NCBI GenBank assembly: GCA_023958085.1
Contig: JAMLGI010000001.1
Location: forward strand, 124,001 to 188,000
Reading direction: 5' to 3'
From: Solirubrobacterales bacterium
Lineage (GTDB): Bacteria > Actinomycetota > Thermoleophilia > Solirubrobacterales > 70-9
DNA length: 64,000 nucleotides
Both the position numbers and the translations under genes were made by a program. The notes beneath the pieces were generated by a model. It saw nothing but the letters and a program-made list of their open reading frames with translations. It did not search any database and was not told the DNA's origin. How positions within the stretch are numbered: position 1 is the stretch's first letter; each line of letters opens with the position of its first letter. Shown here in pieces: positions 46,834-59,386 of the stretch.

Positions 46834-48837
46834 TTGACCATGGCCCGGACCGACTACACAGGGCGCAGGATCTGGCTCGTCTGGGGTGAGCTCGCCGGGC
46901 TCTGGACCCTGGTATTTGCCCAGCGGGCCTTCGATCGGATCGCCTCCGGCCCGGACGCATTCACCCAGATCGGGGCGGACCGGCTCGATCTGATCCTGAT
47001 CATCATCGTGGTGGCCCTGCTGCCCCCGACCGTCGCCTGGCTGGTCGAGATCGCGGTCGCCCGGTTGCGTTCCCCGGCTGCCGCCCACCGTCTTCACGCG
47101 GTCATTTTCGGCGCGGCGATCGGCCTCGTCTTCTGGCAGTTTGCGGTCGCTCAGGGGCTGGCGGTTCCGCTTCGCTTCCTGCCGGCGATCGCCCTCGGGG
47201 CGGGTGGAACCTGGCTCTACCTGAACGCGAGGGTGATCCGGCAGTTCACCGAACTGCTCGCCCTGGCGACCCCGGTGGTGATCGCGATCTTTGCCTTCAC
47301 CTATCCCGCCTCGGCCCAGATGCTGCCGTCGAAATCCCCCTCCGAGGTCGCGCCGATCACGGCCCGGACCCCGGTCGTACTGGTGGTCTTCGACGAGTTC
47401 CCGCTCGACATGCTGCTCGACCGGAAGGGAAGAGTTGATCACCGGCTTTTCCCCAACTTCGCCCGGCTGGCCCGCAGCTCAACCTGGTACCCGAACGCGC
47501 GGGCGGTGACCGCATCGACGATCCGGGCGGTTCCGGCGATCATGAGTGGCCGGCTGCCGAGTTCCAGATCCCGCCCGCTGGTCTCCGATCACGCCCTGCC
47601 CGACAATCTCTGTGATCTGCTCGATCGCGGTGGCTACCGGGTCAACGCGGTCGAGACGATCACCGAGTTCTGTGGGGCCAGGCACTCCCGGCCGGACCGG
47701 CTGAGGACGATGCTCTCCCGCACACTCGCCTCCGGGGTGGTCCCGCCGAGCGGGCTTCTGCCGGAGATCAGCGACAGCCTGGTCGCCCCGCCCCCGGGGC
47801 CGATCCCGTCCTTCTCGGGTGGCCGGGCCGAGGAGTTCAACCGGTTCATCGACTCGATCGGTACAGACCGACGCAGCTTCAACTTCGCCCATCCGATGCT
47901 GCCCCACCGCCGCTGGATGTACATGCCGGACGGGAGCCGGTTCACACCCGATCCGAGGCCGTGGGGTCTGCGTCGTCCGGAGCGGGACTTCCTGTTCCAG
48001 CAGGCGATGCTTCAGGTCGGGTTCGTCGACCGGGAGATCGGGCGGCTGGTCGCGAGGATGAAGGCCCGGGGGATCTGGCGGGACTCGCTGCTGGTGGTGA
48101 CCGCCGACCACGGTCTGAACATGACCTTCCGGGGCCAGGCGGACGATCTCCCCGAAACCGGTCAGCCAACCTGGGACAGCCGCGACCTGACCGCAGAGAA
48201 CGCCGGGGCACTGCTGCCGATCCCGCTGTTCGTCAAGTTCCCCGGCCAGAACGGCGGCCGGACCGAGCGGGCGGAGGTCACCTCGGCCGATATCGCGCCG
48301 ACCGTTTTCAGGGAACTCGGGATGAATCCTCCGGCCGAAGACCCGCTCGACGGTCGGCCCCTTCAGGAGGAGCGCCCCGCGCGGATCGATCCGATCAGGG
48401 CGTTGAGCCGGACCGGCAACCTGAACGTGCCCCGGGAGACGTACAGGGACGCCCGCCGGGAAGCCCGCCTGCTCCGACAGCGGCTGTTCGCCCGCGGCAG
48501 CTTCTACGCAACCGGAGGACATCCGGGGCTGATCGGCTCCGCGGTGGCCGACCGGCCCGGTCTGGTCCCGGTGCATGTGCTTGCCGACCGGGGTCCGGCC
48601 GGTCCCGACGGCGGGCCGAAGGTCGGCCCCGGACGCTGGCTGTTCCGGCTCGGGGAGAGGCTGCCGGGTCCGGGTCGGGCGGTGGCGATCGCGGTCAACG
48701 GGAAGGTTGTGGCCACGGTCCGGCCCTGGTACGACCGCCGCACCGGCGAGTGGACCGCCGGAATCATCCTGCCGGACTCCGCCTTCCGTGCCCTCGGCAA
48801 CCAGGTAACGGTCCACGCGATCCCGCCAACCCGGTAA
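46834..48837 (+). CDS. Membrane-anchored alkaline-phosphatase-superfamily enzyme (sulfatase-like), paralogue 1
   Basis: A 667-residue protein with about five N-terminal membrane helices (to about residue 160) and a large outside domain. The metal-binding beginning is VVLVVFDEFPLDMLL. A likely nucleophile Thr lies in TASTIRAVPAIMSGRLP. The metal site DHG is in VVTADHGLN, and PLFVKFPGQ closes the core. A small beta domain with VAIAVNGKVVATVRPW ends it. The layout is like LTA synthases and phosphoethanolamine transferases, so a role in cell-envelope polymer modification is plausible. Two paralogues lie at 49188-51263 and 57350-59386. Confidence 0.85.
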   Translation: MTMARTDYTGRRIWLVWGELAGLWTLVFAQRAFDRIASGPDAFTQIGADRLDLILIIIVVALLPPTVAWLVEIAVARLRSPAAAHRLHAVIFGAAIGLVFWQFAVAQGLAVPLRFLPAIALGAGGTWLYLNARVIRQFTELLALATPVVIAIFAFTYPASAQMLPSKSPSEVAPITARTPVVLVVFDEFPLDMLLDRKGRVDHRLFPNFARLARSSTWYPNARAVTASTIRAVPAIMSGRLPSSRSRPLVSDHALPDNLCDLLDRGGYRVNAVETITEFCGARHSRPDRLRTMLSRTLASGVVPPSGLLPEISDSLVAPPPGPIPSFSGGRAEEFNRFIDSIGTDRRSFNFAHPMLPHRRWMYMPDGSRFTPDPRPWGLRRPERDFLFQQAMLQVGFVDREIGRLVARMKARGIWRDSLLVVTADHGLNMTFRGQADDLPETGQPTWDSRDLTAENAGALLPIPLFVKFPGQNGGRTERAEVTSADIAPTVFRELGMNPPAEDPLDGRPLQEERPARIDPIRALSRTGNLNVPRETYRDARREARLLRQRLFARGSFYATGGHPGLIGSAVADRPGLVPVHVLADRGPAGPDGGPKVGPGRWLFRLGERLPGPGRAVAIAVNGKVVATVRPWYDRRTGEWTAGIILPDSAFRALGNQVTVHAIPPTR

Positions 48838-49187: not shown

Positions 49188-51263
49188 TCACTCCAGGTTG
49201 TCGCCCAACGGCATCAGGCGGTTGCCTTCGACCGCGTAGATCCCGATCTCGTTTCGGCCGGGTTTCAGGGTGGCCGGGTCGACCAGGGCGCCGAAACGGT
49301 TTGCCGCCTGGAACTCGAACGATCTTGCCGTGCCCCCGATCCTGCCGTTGACCGCGACCGCAACCAGGGTCCCGGGACCGTAGGGCTCAGCCAGCCGGCC
49401 GGTCACATCGATCGGCAGTGGTTCCTGTCCCGGATGGACGTCCTGCCAAAGTCCCGGGCTGTCGAGTTCGGCCAGGGTCACGTCCGGCGGTACCGACCGG
49501 ACTCGACGGCCGATCAGTTCCGGGGCCGGTCCCAGGGTGTAGAGCGGGCCGTCGCCGAGCCGTTCCCGGGAACGGGCGATCGCGGCGTTTCGCTGGGCAA
49601 TCATCTGCGGAATCCCGATCGAGAGCTCCCGGTCGTCGTTCAGCACATCCTTCACCGTGGCCGGCCGCTTCGGGACCGGCCCCTGCAGCGGCACCCCGTC
49701 GAACCGGTAGCCGTCGCTCACCCCGACCGCCCGGGCGATCGTCGGCAGGATGTCGAGGGTGGTGCTGTGCTTGCGACTGATCGTCCCCTGTTGCCGGCCC
49801 GGGTACTTGATGAAGAGTGGCGGGTTGGCCACCTCGCCCATCGCCCGCCGATCAACCCGGCGGCGGGCCACCCCGTCACCCTCGAAGGAGATCCCGTGAT
49901 CGGCGGCCACCACCACGATCGCATCGTCCCAGATGCCCTTCCGCCGGAGGGCTTGTTCCATCCGGCCGAGCAGCCGGTCGGCGAATCCGGCCTGTGTGTA
50001 CATCCGGGCCTGGGCGGAGGCGATCCCGTCGCTGTCGACCAGCCACCTGTCGTTCTCGGGGTTCCAGAGCACATCGATCGGTGACCAGTTGTAGGTCCGT
50101 CCGTCGGCGGTCAGGTGCCACGGCTGGTGGGGCAGGACCAGGTGCATCACGGTCAGGCCCCGACGACTGTCCGGAATCCCCCGGATGAACGATCGGTAAC
50201 CGCCCGGGTCGGGACCGGAACCGAGCTCCTTCAGGAAGAACCGATCGGTCCGTTCCGACTGCCGGTCACGGCCCGAAAGCCCGAAGTCCTGAAAGGTGCT
50301 GCTCACATCCGGCAGCCGGTCGGCCAGCCTCGGGGGCAGGATCAACCTGCCCTCGACGTATCTGAGGTCCGAGAGGAGTGCGGTCAACCGTTCGGTGCGG
50401 GACGGTTCGCTTCCGGAGGCCGGGCAGAGCTCCACCGGGCAGAGCGATGTGACCGGTTCCATCGCGTGAACCGGACGGTCCCCGCCGAGCAGGGTGAAGA
50501 TGTTCTCGGGTTGGTCGCGGGTGGTCGGCAGGGCGTCGTCCGGCGGGTGGCGGCCGGTGAGGATTGCCGGAACCGCCCGTGGGGTGAAAAAGTCCACGGT
50601 GGACTGGTTGATGTACCAGGTGGACTGGCGGGCGAGACGGGCGAAGTTGGGGAAGCGCCGCCGGTCGACCTTCCCGGGAGAGGACATCAGGTCGGAGTTG
50701 CCGAGCTCGTCGAAGATCATCAGCACCACCGGGCTGTCTCCGCCGCCCCCGGTCCGGGCGATCGCCTCGCTCTCGCCGGGGAAGATCACCTTCGAGGCCG
50801 GGCTCGCGAACACGAACAGGACGAGGATCACGACCGGGGCGAGAATCAGGATGTCAAGCAGGTTCCGGAAGAAGTCCAGCCGGTGGGCGGCCCAGGCGAA
50901 AAGTGCCCCCGACCCGATGGCGAACAGCAGGATCAGCAGGGTCGGGCTCTCGAACAGCTTCGAGATGACCTCGACGAAGAAGACGGCCGCGATCCCGCCG
51001 AGCAGCAGCAGGTGAAGCCAGTTGTAGACGAGCGGACTGAACCGGACCACGATCGCCTCGACCCCCAACAGCAGCAGGGGCGGCAACAGGGTGAAGCCGA
51101 TCGCGAGAATCAGGACGTCGCCGGGATCGTTGCCCCGGGCGACGAAGAAGTCCGGGTTCCGGCCCAGCAGGTCAAGCAGCGGCTGGACGAAGGCAAGCGC
51201 CCAGACGGCGGCCAGATGGCCACCGCCGAGCAGCAGTTCTTTTCCGGTGGGTCGTGCGCCCAT
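49188..51263 (-). CDS. Membrane-anchored alkaline-phosphatase-superfamily enzyme, paralogue 2
   Basis: A 691-residue protein with the same layout as paralogue 1: about five membrane helices, the metal-binding VVLMIFDELGNSDLM, the nucleophile-region FTPRAVPAILTGRHP (T-P-R fits the sulfatase C/S-x-P-x-R motif with threonine as nucleophile), VVAADHGIS, and PLFIKYPGR, then a C-terminal beta domain (VAVAVNGRIGGTARSF). It is more diverged than paralogues 1 and 3 are from each other and is oriented opposite to them. Likely acts on an envelope polymer; substrate unknown. Confidence 0.85.
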   Translation of the reverse strand: MGARPTGKELLLGGGHLAAVWALAFVQPLLDLLGRNPDFFVARGNDPGDVLILAIGFTLLPPLLLLGVEAIVVRFSPLVYNWLHLLLLGGIAAVFFVEVISKLFESPTLLILLFAIGSGALFAWAAHRLDFFRNLLDILILAPVVILVLFVFASPASKVIFPGESEAIARTGGGGDSPVVLMIFDELGNSDLMSSPGKVDRRRFPNFARLARQSTWYINQSTVDFFTPRAVPAILTGRHPPDDALPTTRDQPENIFTLLGGDRPVHAMEPVTSLCPVELCPASGSEPSRTERLTALLSDLRYVEGRLILPPRLADRLPDVSSTFQDFGLSGRDRQSERTDRFFLKELGSGPDPGGYRSFIRGIPDSRRGLTVMHLVLPHQPWHLTADGRTYNWSPIDVLWNPENDRWLVDSDGIASAQARMYTQAGFADRLLGRMEQALRRKGIWDDAIVVVAADHGISFEGDGVARRRVDRRAMGEVANPPLFIKYPGRQQGTISRKHSTTLDILPTIARAVGVSDGYRFDGVPLQGPVPKRPATVKDVLNDDRELSIGIPQMIAQRNAAIARSRERLGDGPLYTLGPAPELIGRRVRSVPPDVTLAELDSPGLWQDVHPGQEPLPIDVTGRLAEPYGPGTLVAVAVNGRIGGTARSFEFQAANRFGALVDPATLKPGRNEIGIYAVEGNRLMPLGDNLE

Positions 51264-51291: not shown

Positions 51292-51597
51292 CTAGGTCCG
51301 GGTCAGGTGTCCACTACGGACTCTGACCCCGAGTTCGACAACCTGGTCCGGGCTTGCGATCGCGAGCCGACCGAGAGCTTCATGCAGCAGGGGATCCTCA
51401 CCGATCACCGGAGCACCAACTGCCAGTCGGTCACTGATCCCGGTTGGCGCCGAGGTGAGTTCAAGTGCGGTCGGCTGCCCACCACCGGGGTACTGAACTA
51501 CGGGTCCATCGGGAAGCTGCTCCCCGGACCCACCCTCGACCGCAGGCATCAACTCGATGGCCAGCAGGTCCGCTGCCTTTTCGTATTCGGCTCTCAT
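51292..51597 (-). CDS. DUF2283-like small protein (complete copy)
   Basis: A 101-residue protein. Its first half (MRAEYEKAADLLAIEL, then DGPVVQYPGGGQPTALELTSA) resembles DUF2283, a short family often found near toxin-antitoxin or phage genes; this match is from memory and modest. A ribosome site AAGGGG sits 6 nt before ATG 51597. From about residue 62 the sequence is unlike the second copy, because the duplication breakpoint lies there (51392). This left-hand copy is the unbroken one. Confidence 0.6.
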   Translation of the reverse strand: MRAEYEKAADLLAIELMPAVEGGSGEQLPDGPVVQYPGGGQPTALELTSAPTGISDRLAVGAPVIGEDPLLHEALGRLAIASPDQVVELGVRVRSGHLTRT

Positions 51598-51743
51598 CGT
51601 TTCCCCTTCTCTATCAGAGTAATGATGCGGTCCCTCATCCCTGAGGACGGGTTCGACCGACCGAACGAGGTGACCGATTGAGGTGACCGAACGCGCCGGC
51701 CGCATCGCTGCGACGATCCACCCCGGCCAACCAAAATCCCCCA

Positions 51744-51849
51744 GGGTGGGGCCAACCAGTGTCTAGTACGACACCTGCGGGCCCCACCCAGAGGAGTGAC
51801 TTGCTGGTGGGGCCGAGAGATATCCCCGGGGATACCTACGGGCCCCACC
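51744..51849. repeat. Paired hairpin element, copy A
   Basis: The first hairpin has 10-bp arms GGGTGGGGCC (51744-51753) and GGCCCCACCC (51780-51789). The second has 9-bp arms GGTGGGGCC (51806-51814) and GGCCCCACC (51841-51849) and encloses the perfect palindrome TATCCCCGGGGATA (51821-51834). The two start 62 bp apart. The element sits between the divergent DUF2283-like and MBL genes and fills most of the 397-bp gap. No coding potential is seen. Confidence 0.8.
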
Positions 51850-51981
51850 GGGTTGGTTGTTGGTGAAGTGCCGCCGGCTTTGGAGCCGTTGCCGCCTTTT
51901 ACGGACCCAGGGGTTCAGGGAGGAACTGTCTCCTCACCAGGGCCAGACGCGTTGCCGGGCGACGAAGATCTGTCCGCCGAC

Positions 51982-51987
51982 TACCCT
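51982..51987 (+). promoter_or_regulatory. -10 box of MBL gene copy A
   Basis: TACCCT ends 7 nt before GTG 51995. Confidence 0.4.
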
Positions 51988-51994
51988 CCCGGGT

Positions 51995-52660
51995 GTGAGC
52001 GATGAAGTGACTGACGGGGCGGCCCCGGGTTTCCCGGACATCTGGCGGGTGGTTGCCGACAATCCGGGCCCCCTGACCCTGACCGGAACCAACACCTACC
52101 TGGTCGGGCGCGACCCCTGCTGGGTGATCGATCCGGGACCGGAGGACGATCGGCATGTCGCTGCCGTGGTTGAGGCTGCCGAGGGGAGGGGCGGGGCCGC
52201 CGGGGCGGTCATCTCCCACCATCACGCCGATCACACCGGCGGCATCCCGGCGATCGAGAAACTCGGCATCGAGGTGACCCAGCCGGTCGACGGGGAGCGT
52301 TACGGGCCGCTGGAGGCGGTCGCCACCCCCGGGCACGCGATCGACCATTTCTGCTTCTTCGCCGACCTGCCGGAGGGACTGGAGAAACCGGGACCGTCTG
52401 TTTCACCGGTGACCTGATCCTCGGCTGGGGATCCCACCTACGTTCCCCGGACGGCGGCTCACTCGCCTCCTACATGGATTCACTCCGGCTGGTCCGCTCC
52501 CGGCAGCCGACTCTGCTCTGTCCCGGCCACGGACCCTGGATCACCGCGGCGGGGAGAAGATCATGGAGTACATAAACCACCGTCAGGACCGGGAGGACGC
52601 CCTGCTCTCCTGTCTTGATCAGGAGTTCGTTCCCCTGTCGGTGCTCACGAGCTGGTCTGG
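51995..52660 (+). pseudogene. Broken MBL-fold hydrolase (duplicate copy A)
   Basis: The reading frame is intact up to a one-base deletion near 52378 (GGACTGG here, GGACCTGG in copy B), after the HxHxDH motif SHHHADHTGG. Beyond it, further single-base differences (an extra C near 52433, one missing near 52447) and codon changes disrupt the C-terminal part. The last stretch is replaced at the duplication junction. The first 127 or so residues can still be read, so a truncated protein may be produced, but the full enzyme is not. The intact gene is at 53308. Confidence 0.85.
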
Positions 52661-52864
52661 ATCCTCACCGATCACCGGAGCACCAACTGCCAGACGATCA
52701 CCGACACCGGTTGACGCCGAGGTAAGTCCAAGTGCAGTCGGCTGCCCACCACCGGGGTACTGGACTACGGGCCCATCGGGAAGCTGCTTCCCGGACCCAC
52801 CCTCGACCACAGGCGTCAACTCGATGACCAGCAGGTCCGCTGCCTTTTCGTATTCGGCTCTCAT
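52619..52864 (-). pseudogene. DUF2283-like gene truncated at the duplication junction
   Basis: This reads as 81 residues: the start and first 62 or so residues match the complete copy at 51292 (MRAEYEKAADLLVIEL, DGPVVQYPGGGQPTALGL). At GEDP the frame leaves the homologous sequence and runs into the hydrolase remnant, ending at a chance stop (DQLVSTDRGTNS). The same ribosome site (AGAGG) and start are kept, so a shortened protein could still be made. Confidence 0.7.
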
Positions 52865-53057
52865 CGGTTCCTCTTCTCTATCAGAGTAATGATGTAGCTC
52901 GGATCGGCTTGGGCAATCACGGCCCAGATGGTCCTGTCTGTGATGGTGATCTCGAATATGGGGATTCCCTTCGGGCCGGCCTCGACCTGCCGATCGAGGT
53001 GACCGAACGCGCCGGACGCTTCGCTGCGACGATCCACCCCGCCCGACCACCACCCCG

Positions 53058-53163
53058 GGGTGGGGCCAACCAGTATCCAATACGACACCTACGGGCCCCA
53101 CCCGGAGGAGTGCCTTGCTGGTGGGGCCGAGAGATATCCCCGGGGATACCTACGGGCCCCACC
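53058..53163. repeat. Paired hairpin element, copy B
   Basis: The same structure as copy A: 10-bp arms at 53058-53067 and 53094-53103, and 9-bp arms at 53120-53128 and 53155-53163, the second enclosing TATCCCCGGGGATA (53135-53148). The 62-bp offset between hairpins is identical. Arms and inner palindrome are unchanged, while the first loop has drifted (several substitutions), suggesting the paired arms matter. Confidence 0.8.
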
Positions 53164-53294
53164 GGGTTGGTTTGGTGGCAGCGCCGCCGGCTTTGGAACC
53201 GTTGTCGCCTGATATGGACTCAGGGGTTCAGGGAGGAACTGTCTCCTCACCAGGGCCAGACGCGCTGTCGGGCGACGAAGATCTGTCCGCCGAC

Positions 53295-53300
53295 TACCCT
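53295..53300 (+). promoter_or_regulatory. -10 box of the intact MBL gene
   Basis: TACCCT ends 7 nt before GTG 53308. Confidence 0.45.
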
Positions 53301-53307
53301 CCCGGGT

Positions 53308-54081
53308 GTGAGCGATGAAGTGAGTGACGGGGAGGCACCGGGATTTCCGGACATCTGGCGGGTGGTTGCGGACAACCCTGGCCCGCTCACCCTGACCGGC
53401 ACCAACACCTATCTGGTCGGGCGCGACCCCTGCTGGGTGATCGACCCCGGGCCGGAAGACAATGCCCATGTCGAGGCTGTCCTGCGGGCGGCCGGGGAGC
53501 GGGGCGGGGCGGCCGGTGCCCTGGTCTCCCACTCGCATGCCGATCACACCGGGGCAGTCCCGGCGGTCGAGGCCCTCGGGATCAAGGTGATCAAGCCGGT
53601 CGACGGGGAGCGTTACGGGCCGCTGGAGGCGGTCGCCACTCCCGGTCACGCGATCGATCACTTCTGCTTTTTCGCCGACCTGCCGGAGGGACCTGGAGAA
53701 ACCGGGACCGTCTGTTTCACCGGTGACCTGATCCTCGGCTGGGGATCCACCTACGTTCCCCCGGACGGCGGCTCACTCGCCTCCTACATGGATTCACTCC
53801 GGCTGGTCCGCTCCCGGCAGCCGACTCTGCTCTGTCCCGGCCATGGACCCTGGATCACCGCCGCCGAAGACAAGATCGAGGAGTACATCGACCACCGGCA
53901 GGCTCGGGAGGACGGGCTGGTCGCCTGTCTGGAGCGGGGGATCCGTTCACGCATGGAACTGCTGAACGAGGTCTGGTCGGACGTCCCGGAGATCCTGCGC
54001 CCGACCGCCGCCGTGGTCCTCGAAGCCCACCTCCAGAAGCTGGAGGCCGAAGGCCGCATTCCCGCCGACCTGGCCGAGTGA
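53308..54081 (+). CDS. MBL-fold metallo-hydrolase (LACTB2-like)
   Basis: A 257-residue metallo-beta-lactamase-fold hydrolase. The zinc motif HxHxDH is HSHADH (residues 75-80), with further ligands in TPGHAIDH and GDLILGWGS, and a late His in CPGHGPW. A helical C-terminal domain follows, as in LACTB2-type ribonucleases/hydrolases (ILRPTAAVVLEAHLQKLEAEG). It is the intact member of the duplicated pair. The start GTG 53308 fits the promoter spacing and aligns with the start of the broken copy. Confidence 0.9.
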   Translation: MSDEVSDGEAPGFPDIWRVVADNPGPLTLTGTNTYLVGRDPCWVIDPGPEDNAHVEAVLRAAGERGGAAGALVSHSHADHTGAVPAVEALGIKVIKPVDGERYGPLEAVATPGHAIDHFCFFADLPEGPGETGTVCFTGDLILGWGSTYVPPDGGSLASYMDSLRLVRSRQPTLLCPGHGPWITAAEDKIEEYIDHRQAREDGLVACLERGIRSRMELLNEVWSDVPEILRPTAAVVLEAHLQKLEAEGRIPADLAE

Positions 54082-57349: not shown

Positions 57350-59386
57350 GTGGGTACGGCCCGTGAGACGGGGGTGAAGGAGGCCGGGGAGACCGGCCCG
57401 CTGCTCCTGACCGGACGCCGGGCGTTCCTGGCCTGGGCCGAGCTGACCGGTTTCTGGGCCATCGTTTTCAGTCAGCAGTCGTTCCAGCGGATTGCCTCCG
57501 GTCCGGAGGCCTACACCGCGGTCGGCGCCGACCGGCTCGACGTTCTCCTGGTCATTGTCCTCGTTGCACTGCTGCCGCCCACCGTTGCCTGGCTGGTGGA
57601 GATCGCGATCTGGCGGCTGGGTTCCGGCGAGGCCGCCCGGATCTTCCACGCGGCTCTTTTCGGGGCGACGCTGGCGGTTTTCTACTGGCAGTTCGCGGTC
57701 GGGAACGGACTCCCGGCCGTGGCCCGATTCCTTCCGGCGGTCCTCCTGCTGGCGGGCGGTTGTCACCTCTACCTGCGGGCCAGGGTGGTCAAGCAGTTCG
57801 CCGAGCTGCTTTCCCTGGCGACCCCGATCGTGATCGCCGTGTTCTGCCTGACCTACCCGACCATCGATCAGCTTCTGCCGCAGAGGGACCCGCAACCGAT
57901 CGCCCGGATCAAACCCGACACCCCGGTGGTGATGGTGGTCTTCGACGAGTTCCCGCTCGACAACCTGCTGAACCAACGCGGCAGCATCGACTCGCGGCTC
58001 TTTCCCGAGTTTGCCCGGCTGGCCGAAAGCTCCACCTGGTATTCGCAGGCCCGGGGGGTCGCCCCCCAGACCCTGCTCGCCCTGCCGACGATCATGACCG
58101 GCAGCCTGCCCGACCCGGATCCGGAGGACCCGGTCGATCTGCCGGTTCCCTCCCCACGGAACTTCCCGGACAACCTCTGCGGACTGCTGGCCGAGGGCGG
58201 ATACCGGCTGCACACCAGGGAAACCATCACCGAGTTCTGTGGCAGCCGGAACGCCCGAATCAGCCGGTTGACAAAGCTGGTCACCCGCTCGATGGTGCCG
58301 GGGGTGATCCCTCCCGGCAACCTGTTGCCACGGATCGGCACCGAGCTGAACACCCGGCTGCCGGAACCGATCAGCGATGCCTTCGCCGGACGCAAGGAGG
58401 ATCTCGACCGCTTCATCGAAGGGATCGACCGGAACCCCCGGACCTTCAACTTCATGCACTCCGTACTGCCACATCAGGCCTGGATGTATCTGCCCGACGG
58501 CGCCACCTACATGCCGGATCTCCGGCTCGGCCTGCGGACCTGGTCAAGACCCGCCCGCGAGCGGGCCTTTCAGCAGGTGATGATCCAGACCTCCATGGTG
58601 GACCGCAAGATCGGCCGGCTGATCGCGCGAATGCGGTCAGCCGGGATCTGGGACCGATCGCTCTTCATCGTGACTGCGGATCACGGCATCGATCTCAGCT
58701 TCGGGAACCGCCCGGTCGGCCGGATGACCGCGAACGACATGCGGAGTCTGGTCCGGGAGAGTGCCGGTGCGATCCTTCCGGTTCCGCTGTTTGTGAAGTT
58801 TCCGGGACAGAAGCGTGGCCGGATCGACCGGGCCGAGGTCACCTCGGCCGACCTCGCCCCGACGATTCTCGGTCAGCTCGGGGTGACCCTGCCGGACCGG
58901 ACGGGAGTGGATGGCCGTCCGCTCGGCGAGGAGCATCGTGATCCCGCCGGACCGGTGGTCGCCTACGATGAAAATGGGCCGGTGCGGACCTCGCGTCGGC
59001 AGTACAACCGGGTCCGGCGGCAGGCCCAGGCCCTCCGTGACCGGCTGTTCGGGAACGGCAGCTTCTACGCCCTCGGAGGCCACCCTGAACTGATCGGCCG
59101 CCCGGTGGCTGTGGAGACCCGACTGACCCCGCTCCCGGGCCCGGTGCTCGGCTCCCCGACCGGTACCCCGGGCGATCCGAAGACGTTTGCCGGGAGATGG
59201 GTCTTCCGGACAGACCGTCCGACCGACCCCCGGGCAGCGGTGGCGATCGCGGTCAACGGGAAGATCGCGGCAACGGCCAGGCCAATGTTCGACCCGGAAA
59301 GCAGCGCCTGGACGGTCGGCACCGTCCTGCCGGACACGGCCTTCTCCACCGGGGCAAACGAAGTCAGGCTCTACGCGATCGGCTGA
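57350..59386 (+). CDS. Membrane-anchored alkaline-phosphatase-superfamily enzyme, paralogue 3
   Basis: A 678-residue close relative of paralogue 1 (46834): AELTGFWAIVFSQQSFQRIASG mirrors its ELAGLWTLVFAQRAFDRIASG. About five membrane helices come first, then VVMVVFDEFPLDNLL, the nucleophile-region PQTLLALPTIMTGSLP, IVTADHGID, PLFVKFPGQ, and the C-terminal beta domain VAIAVNGKIAATARP. It starts with GTG, 4 nt after the PPOX-family gene. An envelope-modifying transferase or hydrolase is likely. Confidence 0.86.
   Translation: MGTARETGVKEAGETGPLLLTGRRAFLAWAELTGFWAIVFSQQSFQRIASGPEAYTAVGADRLDVLLVIVLVALLPPTVAWLVEIAIWRLGSGEAARIFHAALFGATLAVFYWQFAVGNGLPAVARFLPAVLLLAGGCHLYLRARVVKQFAELLSLATPIVIAVFCLTYPTIDQLLPQRDPQPIARIKPDTPVVMVVFDEFPLDNLLNQRGSIDSRLFPEFARLAESSTWYSQARGVAPQTLLALPTIMTGSLPDPDPEDPVDLPVPSPRNFPDNLCGLLAEGGYRLHTRETITEFCGSRNARISRLTKLVTRSMVPGVIPPGNLLPRIGTELNTRLPEPISDAFAGRKEDLDRFIEGIDRNPRTFNFMHSVLPHQAWMYLPDGATYMPDLRLGLRTWSRPARERAFQQVMIQTSMVDRKIGRLIARMRSAGIWDRSLFIVTADHGIDLSFGNRPVGRMTANDMRSLVRESAGAILPVPLFVKFPGQKRGRIDRAEVTSADLAPTILGQLGVTLPDRTGVDGRPLGEEHRDPAGPVVAYDENGPVRTSRRQYNRVRRQAQALRDRLFGNGSFYALGGHPELIGRPVAVETRLTPLPGPVLGSPTGTPGDPKTFAGRWVFRTDRPTDPRAAVAIAVNGKIAATARPMFDPESSAWTVGTVLPDTAFSTGANEVRLYAIG

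What the first reader, a model, noticed from the sequence alone, without database searches (positions are those of the whole stretch)
51392..53976. 1.3-kb tandem duplication that left outer gene copies intact and inner copies broken
Copy A (51392-52658) and copy B (52659-53976) are homologous along their length. The left DUF2283-like gene (51292-51597) and the right MBL hydrolase (53308-54081) are whole. The inner MBL copy (51995-52660) has a one-base deletion near 52378 plus later indels, and the inner DUF2283 copy (52619-52864) is fused at GEDP to hydrolase remnant. This is exactly what one unequal crossover with breakpoints inside the two genes would leave. Divergence between the copies shows the event is not brand new, yet the arms of the intergenic hairpins are unchanged.
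Basis: seen in the sequence. Interest (0 to 1): 0.65.

Follow-up and report, generated by a model that had tools for sequence, protein, structure and literature searches.

The report
Old, patchwork tandem gene duplication
A 1.3-kb stretch of bacterial DNA is present twice in a row so that only the two outer genes remain whole; it is an ordinary duplication scar, but the copies differ in an uneven, patchwork way that one crossover followed by steady decay cannot explain, and an assembly mix-up of two strains is not excluded.

Summary
Copy A (51392-52658) and copy B (52659-53976) are homologous from end to end. The outer DUF2283-like gene and outer MBL hydrolase are whole; the inner MBL and inner DUF2283 are truncated against each other at one junction, and inner MBL is also frameshifted. 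(1) The two breakpoints share no homology beyond about 2 bp, so the join was illegitimate, not a homologous unequal crossover. (2) Divergence is a mosaic: noncoding about 7%, MBL 5' half Ks about 0.47 with constrained protein changes, then 171 bp at 1.2% with four single-base indels, then about 24%. One event plus uniform decay does not give this; allele import or gene conversion, or two strains joined in assembly, is needed. (3) The hairpin arms are unchanged because they belong to a genome-wide family of 44-bp palindromes (41 copies, none in 49 other family genomes) whose arms hardly vary. The spacer also holds a DUF4258-like toxin-gene remnant and a copied ABC-ATPase gene tail. Best reading: a real duplication with later recombination, ordinary in kind. 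The palindrome family is the more interesting neighbour.

The parts
51392..52658 (.). copy A of the tandem unit
   Evidence: alignment
52659..53976 (.). copy B of the tandem unit
   Evidence: alignment
51292..51597 (-). whole DUF2283-like ORF (101 aa); no Pfam hit itself, 47% identical to a protein of congener G007 that matches DUF2283 weakly
52658..52864 (-). inner DUF2283-like copy, truncated after GEDP at the junction
51995..52658 (+). inner MBL hydrolase copy: 5' half open and constrained, single-base indels after 52378, C-terminal winged-helix part missing
53308..54081 (+). whole MBL-fold hydrolase with BLACT_WH domain (LACTB2-like)
   Evidence: Pfam; PDB 4ad9 E 5e-28
52640..52670 (.). 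junction MBL...CTGGTCTGG/ATCCTC...DUF2283; about 2 bp of microhomology, no longer homology
52865..52984 (-). 3' remnant of a DUF4258-like toxin gene overlapping the DUF2283 start by ATGA (copy B; shorter and scrambled in copy A at 51598-51673)
   Evidence: ORF; intact overlapping pair in L057 2824-3365 (-)
52985..53058 (+). 3' end of an ABC-ATPase coding sequence, a copy of the one on contig C11, next to palindrome 1 (copy A: 51674-51744)
   Evidence: ABC identity read from the C11 sequence, not scanned
51745..51849 (.). pair of 44-bp palindromes, copy A (51745-51788 and 51806-51849, spaced 61)
53059..53163 (.). pair of 44-bp palindromes, copy B (53059-53102 and 53120-53163, spaced 61)

Best explanation
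A real tandem duplication of a [DUF2283-like - palindrome pair - MBL] segment, made by an illegitimate join between the 3' parts of the two convergent genes (or by a larger duplication followed by a deletion at the same place). The outer genes were left whole and the inner ones truncated against each other (shown by the sequence). Afterwards parts of the MBL copies were exchanged with a divergent allele and/or with each other, giving the mosaic (inferred from the uneven divergence). The inner MBL then collected single-base frameshifts; this genome has NucS and no detected MutS, so slippage indels are probably left unrepaired (inferred). The unit makes no new product; the outer MBL is the working enzyme (inferred from its intact motifs and conservation).
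For: End-to-end homology and reciprocal truncation. Single MBL in congeners, usually close downstream of the WYL gene and just ahead of the PPOX gene. No homology at the breakpoints. Mosaic divergence: 30/103 third positions in the MBL 5' part against about 7% noncoding and 6/83 in the middle part, Fisher p 3e-8 and 1.5e-4. The rest of the sampled assembly is nearly frameshift-free, about 1 in 464 kb. Another local copying of a gene end in the same genome, L111 17299-17668 and 19491-19859 at 96%. NucS found, MutS_V not found; M. smegmatis NucS does not repair 1-2 bp indels (PMC11551767).
Against: Indels outnumber substitutions in 52379-52550 (4 to 2), all single bases and next to C runs, shortly before the junction: this also looks like sequencing error near a contig end. 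The donor allele for the divergent tracts was not found, and which copy received it cannot be told.
Confidence: 0.55

Rival explanations
1. Assembly artefact: the genome bin mixes two strains, each with one copy. A contig of strain X ending in MBL was joined to a contig of strain Y starting in DUF2283, so the inner genes look broken only because contigs ended there.
For: All breaks coincide with one join that has no homology. Single-base homopolymer indels cluster in the last 280 bp before the join while the rest of the sampled assembly is nearly clean. A's 5' half is protein-constrained, as a working orthologue in another strain would be. Draft in 31 contigs, contamination 4.3%.
Against: An assembler normally needs a shared stretch to join contigs, and none exists at the junction. 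DUF2283 A and B differ by substitutions only, and divergence differs between neighbouring tracts, so strain mosaicism would be needed as well. No other such join was seen in about 464 kb apart from the different C13 case.
Confidence: 0.25
2. Duplicative import (merodiploid scar): DNA from a related strain carrying its own DUF2283-palindrome-MBL allele was taken up, paired by homology in the near-identical part of MBL, and joined illegitimately at the other end. The copies then differed from the start.
For: Explains protein-constrained divergence of A, the near-identical tract 52379-52550 as the anchor, and a non-homologous junction at the other end. Merodiploids born of natural transformation are reported in Streptococcus pneumoniae (PMC3784515, title and abstract as listed; not read in full).
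Against: Noncoding and DUF2283 differ by only about 7% while MBL Ks is 0.47, so the donor itself would have to be mosaic. No donor was found, and competence genes were not examined.
Confidence: 0.2

Closest known systems
Ordinary bacterial tandem duplication formed at short or no homology, with decay of truncated inner copies
   Same: two adjacent direct copies, a non-homologous junction, outer genes whole, inner genes truncated and frameshifted
   Different: uneven divergence that needs recombination or import after or during the event
Repetitive extragenic palindromes (REP/BIME/REPIN), for the palindromes inside the unit
   Same: dispersed intergenic palindromes, many near convergent gene ends, often in pairs
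   Different: 44 bp with 9-bp arms that hardly vary, pairs in direct orientation at 61 bp, no Y1 (RAYT) transposase found in this genome, no covariation in most of the inner part
LACTB2-like MBL hydrolases with a BLACT_WH domain (PDB 4ad9)
   Same: HxHxDH motif, PGHGP motif and winged-helix end in the outer copy
   Different: the inner copy lacks the winged helix, and frameshifts cut its later motifs off from the start of the frame

Membership tests
Tandem duplication | two adjacent direct copies over the whole unit | tested here: met
Tandem duplication by homologous unequal crossover | homology at the breakpoints | tested here: not met
   no more similarity than shuffled sequence
Tandem duplication | junction present in sequencing reads | not testable with these tools
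   no reads available
Tandem duplication | single copy in relatives | tested here: met
MBL hydrolase, LACTB2-like (outer copy) | Lactamase_B and BLACT_WH domains above cut-off | tested here: met
DUF4258-DUF2283 toxin-antitoxin-like pair | both genes adjacent and whole | tested here: not met
   only a 3' remnant of the DUF4258-like gene here; whole pair in L057, with both matches under the Pfam cut-offs
REP/REPIN element (palindromes) | dispersed extragenic palindrome in many copies | tested here: met
   41 exact copies in own genome; all sampled loci intergenic
REP/REPIN element (palindromes) | Y1/RAYT transposase in the genome | tested here: not met
   (draft genome, 95% complete)

The most novel reading that the evidence does not exclude
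The palindrome family, not the duplication, is the active player: a species-restricted 44-bp DNA site with near-invariant arms, bound by an unknown protein, placed in pairs at 61 bp. Breakage or copying next to such sites would spread gene ends (the ABC-ATPase tail beside palindrome 1) and could seed local duplications such as this one.
Probability: 0.1. Interest if true: 0.55.

Novelty: new member of a known kind. Interest (0 to 1): 0.22.

Why it matters
The locus itself is a scar and changes little. It does show, on one kilobase, how a bacterial duplication can look old in one stretch and new in the next, so dating by overall divergence misleads. It also exposes a palindromic repeat family that was found in one species only among the genomes searched, which would be a test case for what keeps repeat arms unchanged when no RAYT gene is seen.

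Tried and rejected
Uniform decay after one event: rejected by scan statistics and Fisher tests. A generally error-rich assembly: rejected, about one clear frameshift in 464 kb. RNA constraint on the palindromes: no covariation beyond the innermost two pairs, no Rfam match. RAYT mobilisation: no Y1_Tnp found. Donor allele for the divergent MBL tracts: none of 11 congeners is consistently closer to A or to B. The genome-contig scan gave only one distant MBL. The viral contigs pattern scan gave three contigs with one exact match each, not followed up. Paper searches on DUF4258 with DUF2283 found nothing.

Full report
Observation. The two copies are there at the stated places. Aligned globally they share 89% of ungapped positions, and BLASTN returns the same pair. 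The left DUF2283-like ORF (51292-51597, minus) and the right MBL ORF (53308-54081, plus) are open. The inner MBL and inner DUF2283 run into each other at 52658. The outer MBL carries Lactamase_B and BLACT_WH domains and is nearest in the PDB to 4ad9, beta-lactamase-like protein 2. The left ORF has no Pfam match itself; it is called DUF2283-like through a 47% relative in congener G007 whose match to DUF2283 is weak.

Surroundings. Congeners have one close MBL gene where the locus is assembled. In most of those where the stretch could be read it lies close downstream of a WYL-domain gene and directly ahead of a PPOX-class gene. Here about 6.5 kb lie between the WYL gene and the outer MBL, and about 2.8 kb between MBL and PPOX. 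The spacer of the unit is itself patched together. Next to the DUF2283 start lies the 3' end of a DUF4258-like gene (4-base overlap ATGA); a whole overlapping pair is in L057. After it comes the 3' end of a coding sequence that reads as an ABC transporter ATPase on contig C11 (identity recognised by eye, not scanned). It matches C11 at 91% over 82 bp in copy B and 94% over 51 bp in copy A, together with a palindrome. Both copies carry these scraps, so they predate the duplication.

Mosaic divergence. Differences per ungapped site are about 7% in DUF2283 and most of the noncoding part, 8-24% in the MBL 5' half up to 52290, 6% over 52291-52378, 1.2% over 52379-52550 and 22-24% over 52551-52658. 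In 51995-52375 NG86 gives Ks 0.47 and Ka 0.09; in the first 150 bp Ka is 0.018, and all 11 differences in 52056-52145 are at third positions. No length change is needed there: the paired gaps that the aligner places near 52244 can be read as substitutions. From 52379 on, four single-base indels are seen in the alignment and one more is inferred from a frame change near 52612. None of 5000 shuffles of the differences along the unit reached the observed maximum or minimum. The Fisher tests use counts read from the tables (noncoding entered as 25 of 350; the table sums to about 26 of 347).

Mechanism. The breakpoint contexts share no more than shuffled sequence does, so homologous crossover is unlikely. 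The layout is that of an illegitimate duplication, or of a larger duplication cut down by a deletion. The constrained divergence in A means that its 5' half spent most of that time in a working gene, either before A was broken or in another lineage that donated it. The indel-rich tract can be read as slippage: NucS was found and MutS_V was not, and NucS of M. smegmatis does not repair 1-2 bp indels (PMC11551767). It can also be read as sequencing error at a contig end. Elsewhere the sampled assembly shows about one frameshift in 464 kb, which speaks against a generally poor assembly but not against a local fault.

Palindromes. GGTGGGGCC-N26-GGCCCCACC occurs 41 times in this genome and in none of 49 other family genomes. 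Allowing three mismatches raises the count to 54, but the reversed control rises to 36, and only about one of the added places looks like a true unit. Fifteen neighbouring pairs were counted, 14 spaced 61 bp and one 60; the spacers differ in sequence. Of 19 loci with both neighbours called, 11 lie between convergent genes, against 39 of 198 intergenic gaps in sampled stretches. Inner positions vary independently except the two central pairs.

Verdict. Ordinary in kind, confirmed in fact, with a corrected mechanism and an open assembly question.

Noticed in passing
window 51745-51849 and 53059-53163; 41 places in G000: Dispersed family of 44-bp palindromes with near-invariant 9-bp arms, often in direct pairs spaced 61 bp, intergenic, enriched between convergent genes, not found in 49 other genomes of the family.
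   Followed up: yes
L111 17299-17668 and 19491-19859 (G000 contig C13): A second local duplication of a gene end (370 bp, 96%) whose copies flank a HipA-like gene (named from memory of the family, not tested).
   Followed up: partly
L095 about 5340 (G000 contig C1): A single-base frameshift in a long gene, the only clear one found in about 464 kb sampled.
   Followed up: partly
window 46834-48837, 49188-51263, 57350-59386: Three large membrane proteins of one sulfatase-like type (Pfam Sulfatase tested for 49188-51263 only) lie around the MBL locus.
   Followed up: no
L119, L120, L121 (viral contigs): Three viral contigs hold one exact match each to the palindrome pattern; relation to the family not examined.
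   Followed up: no
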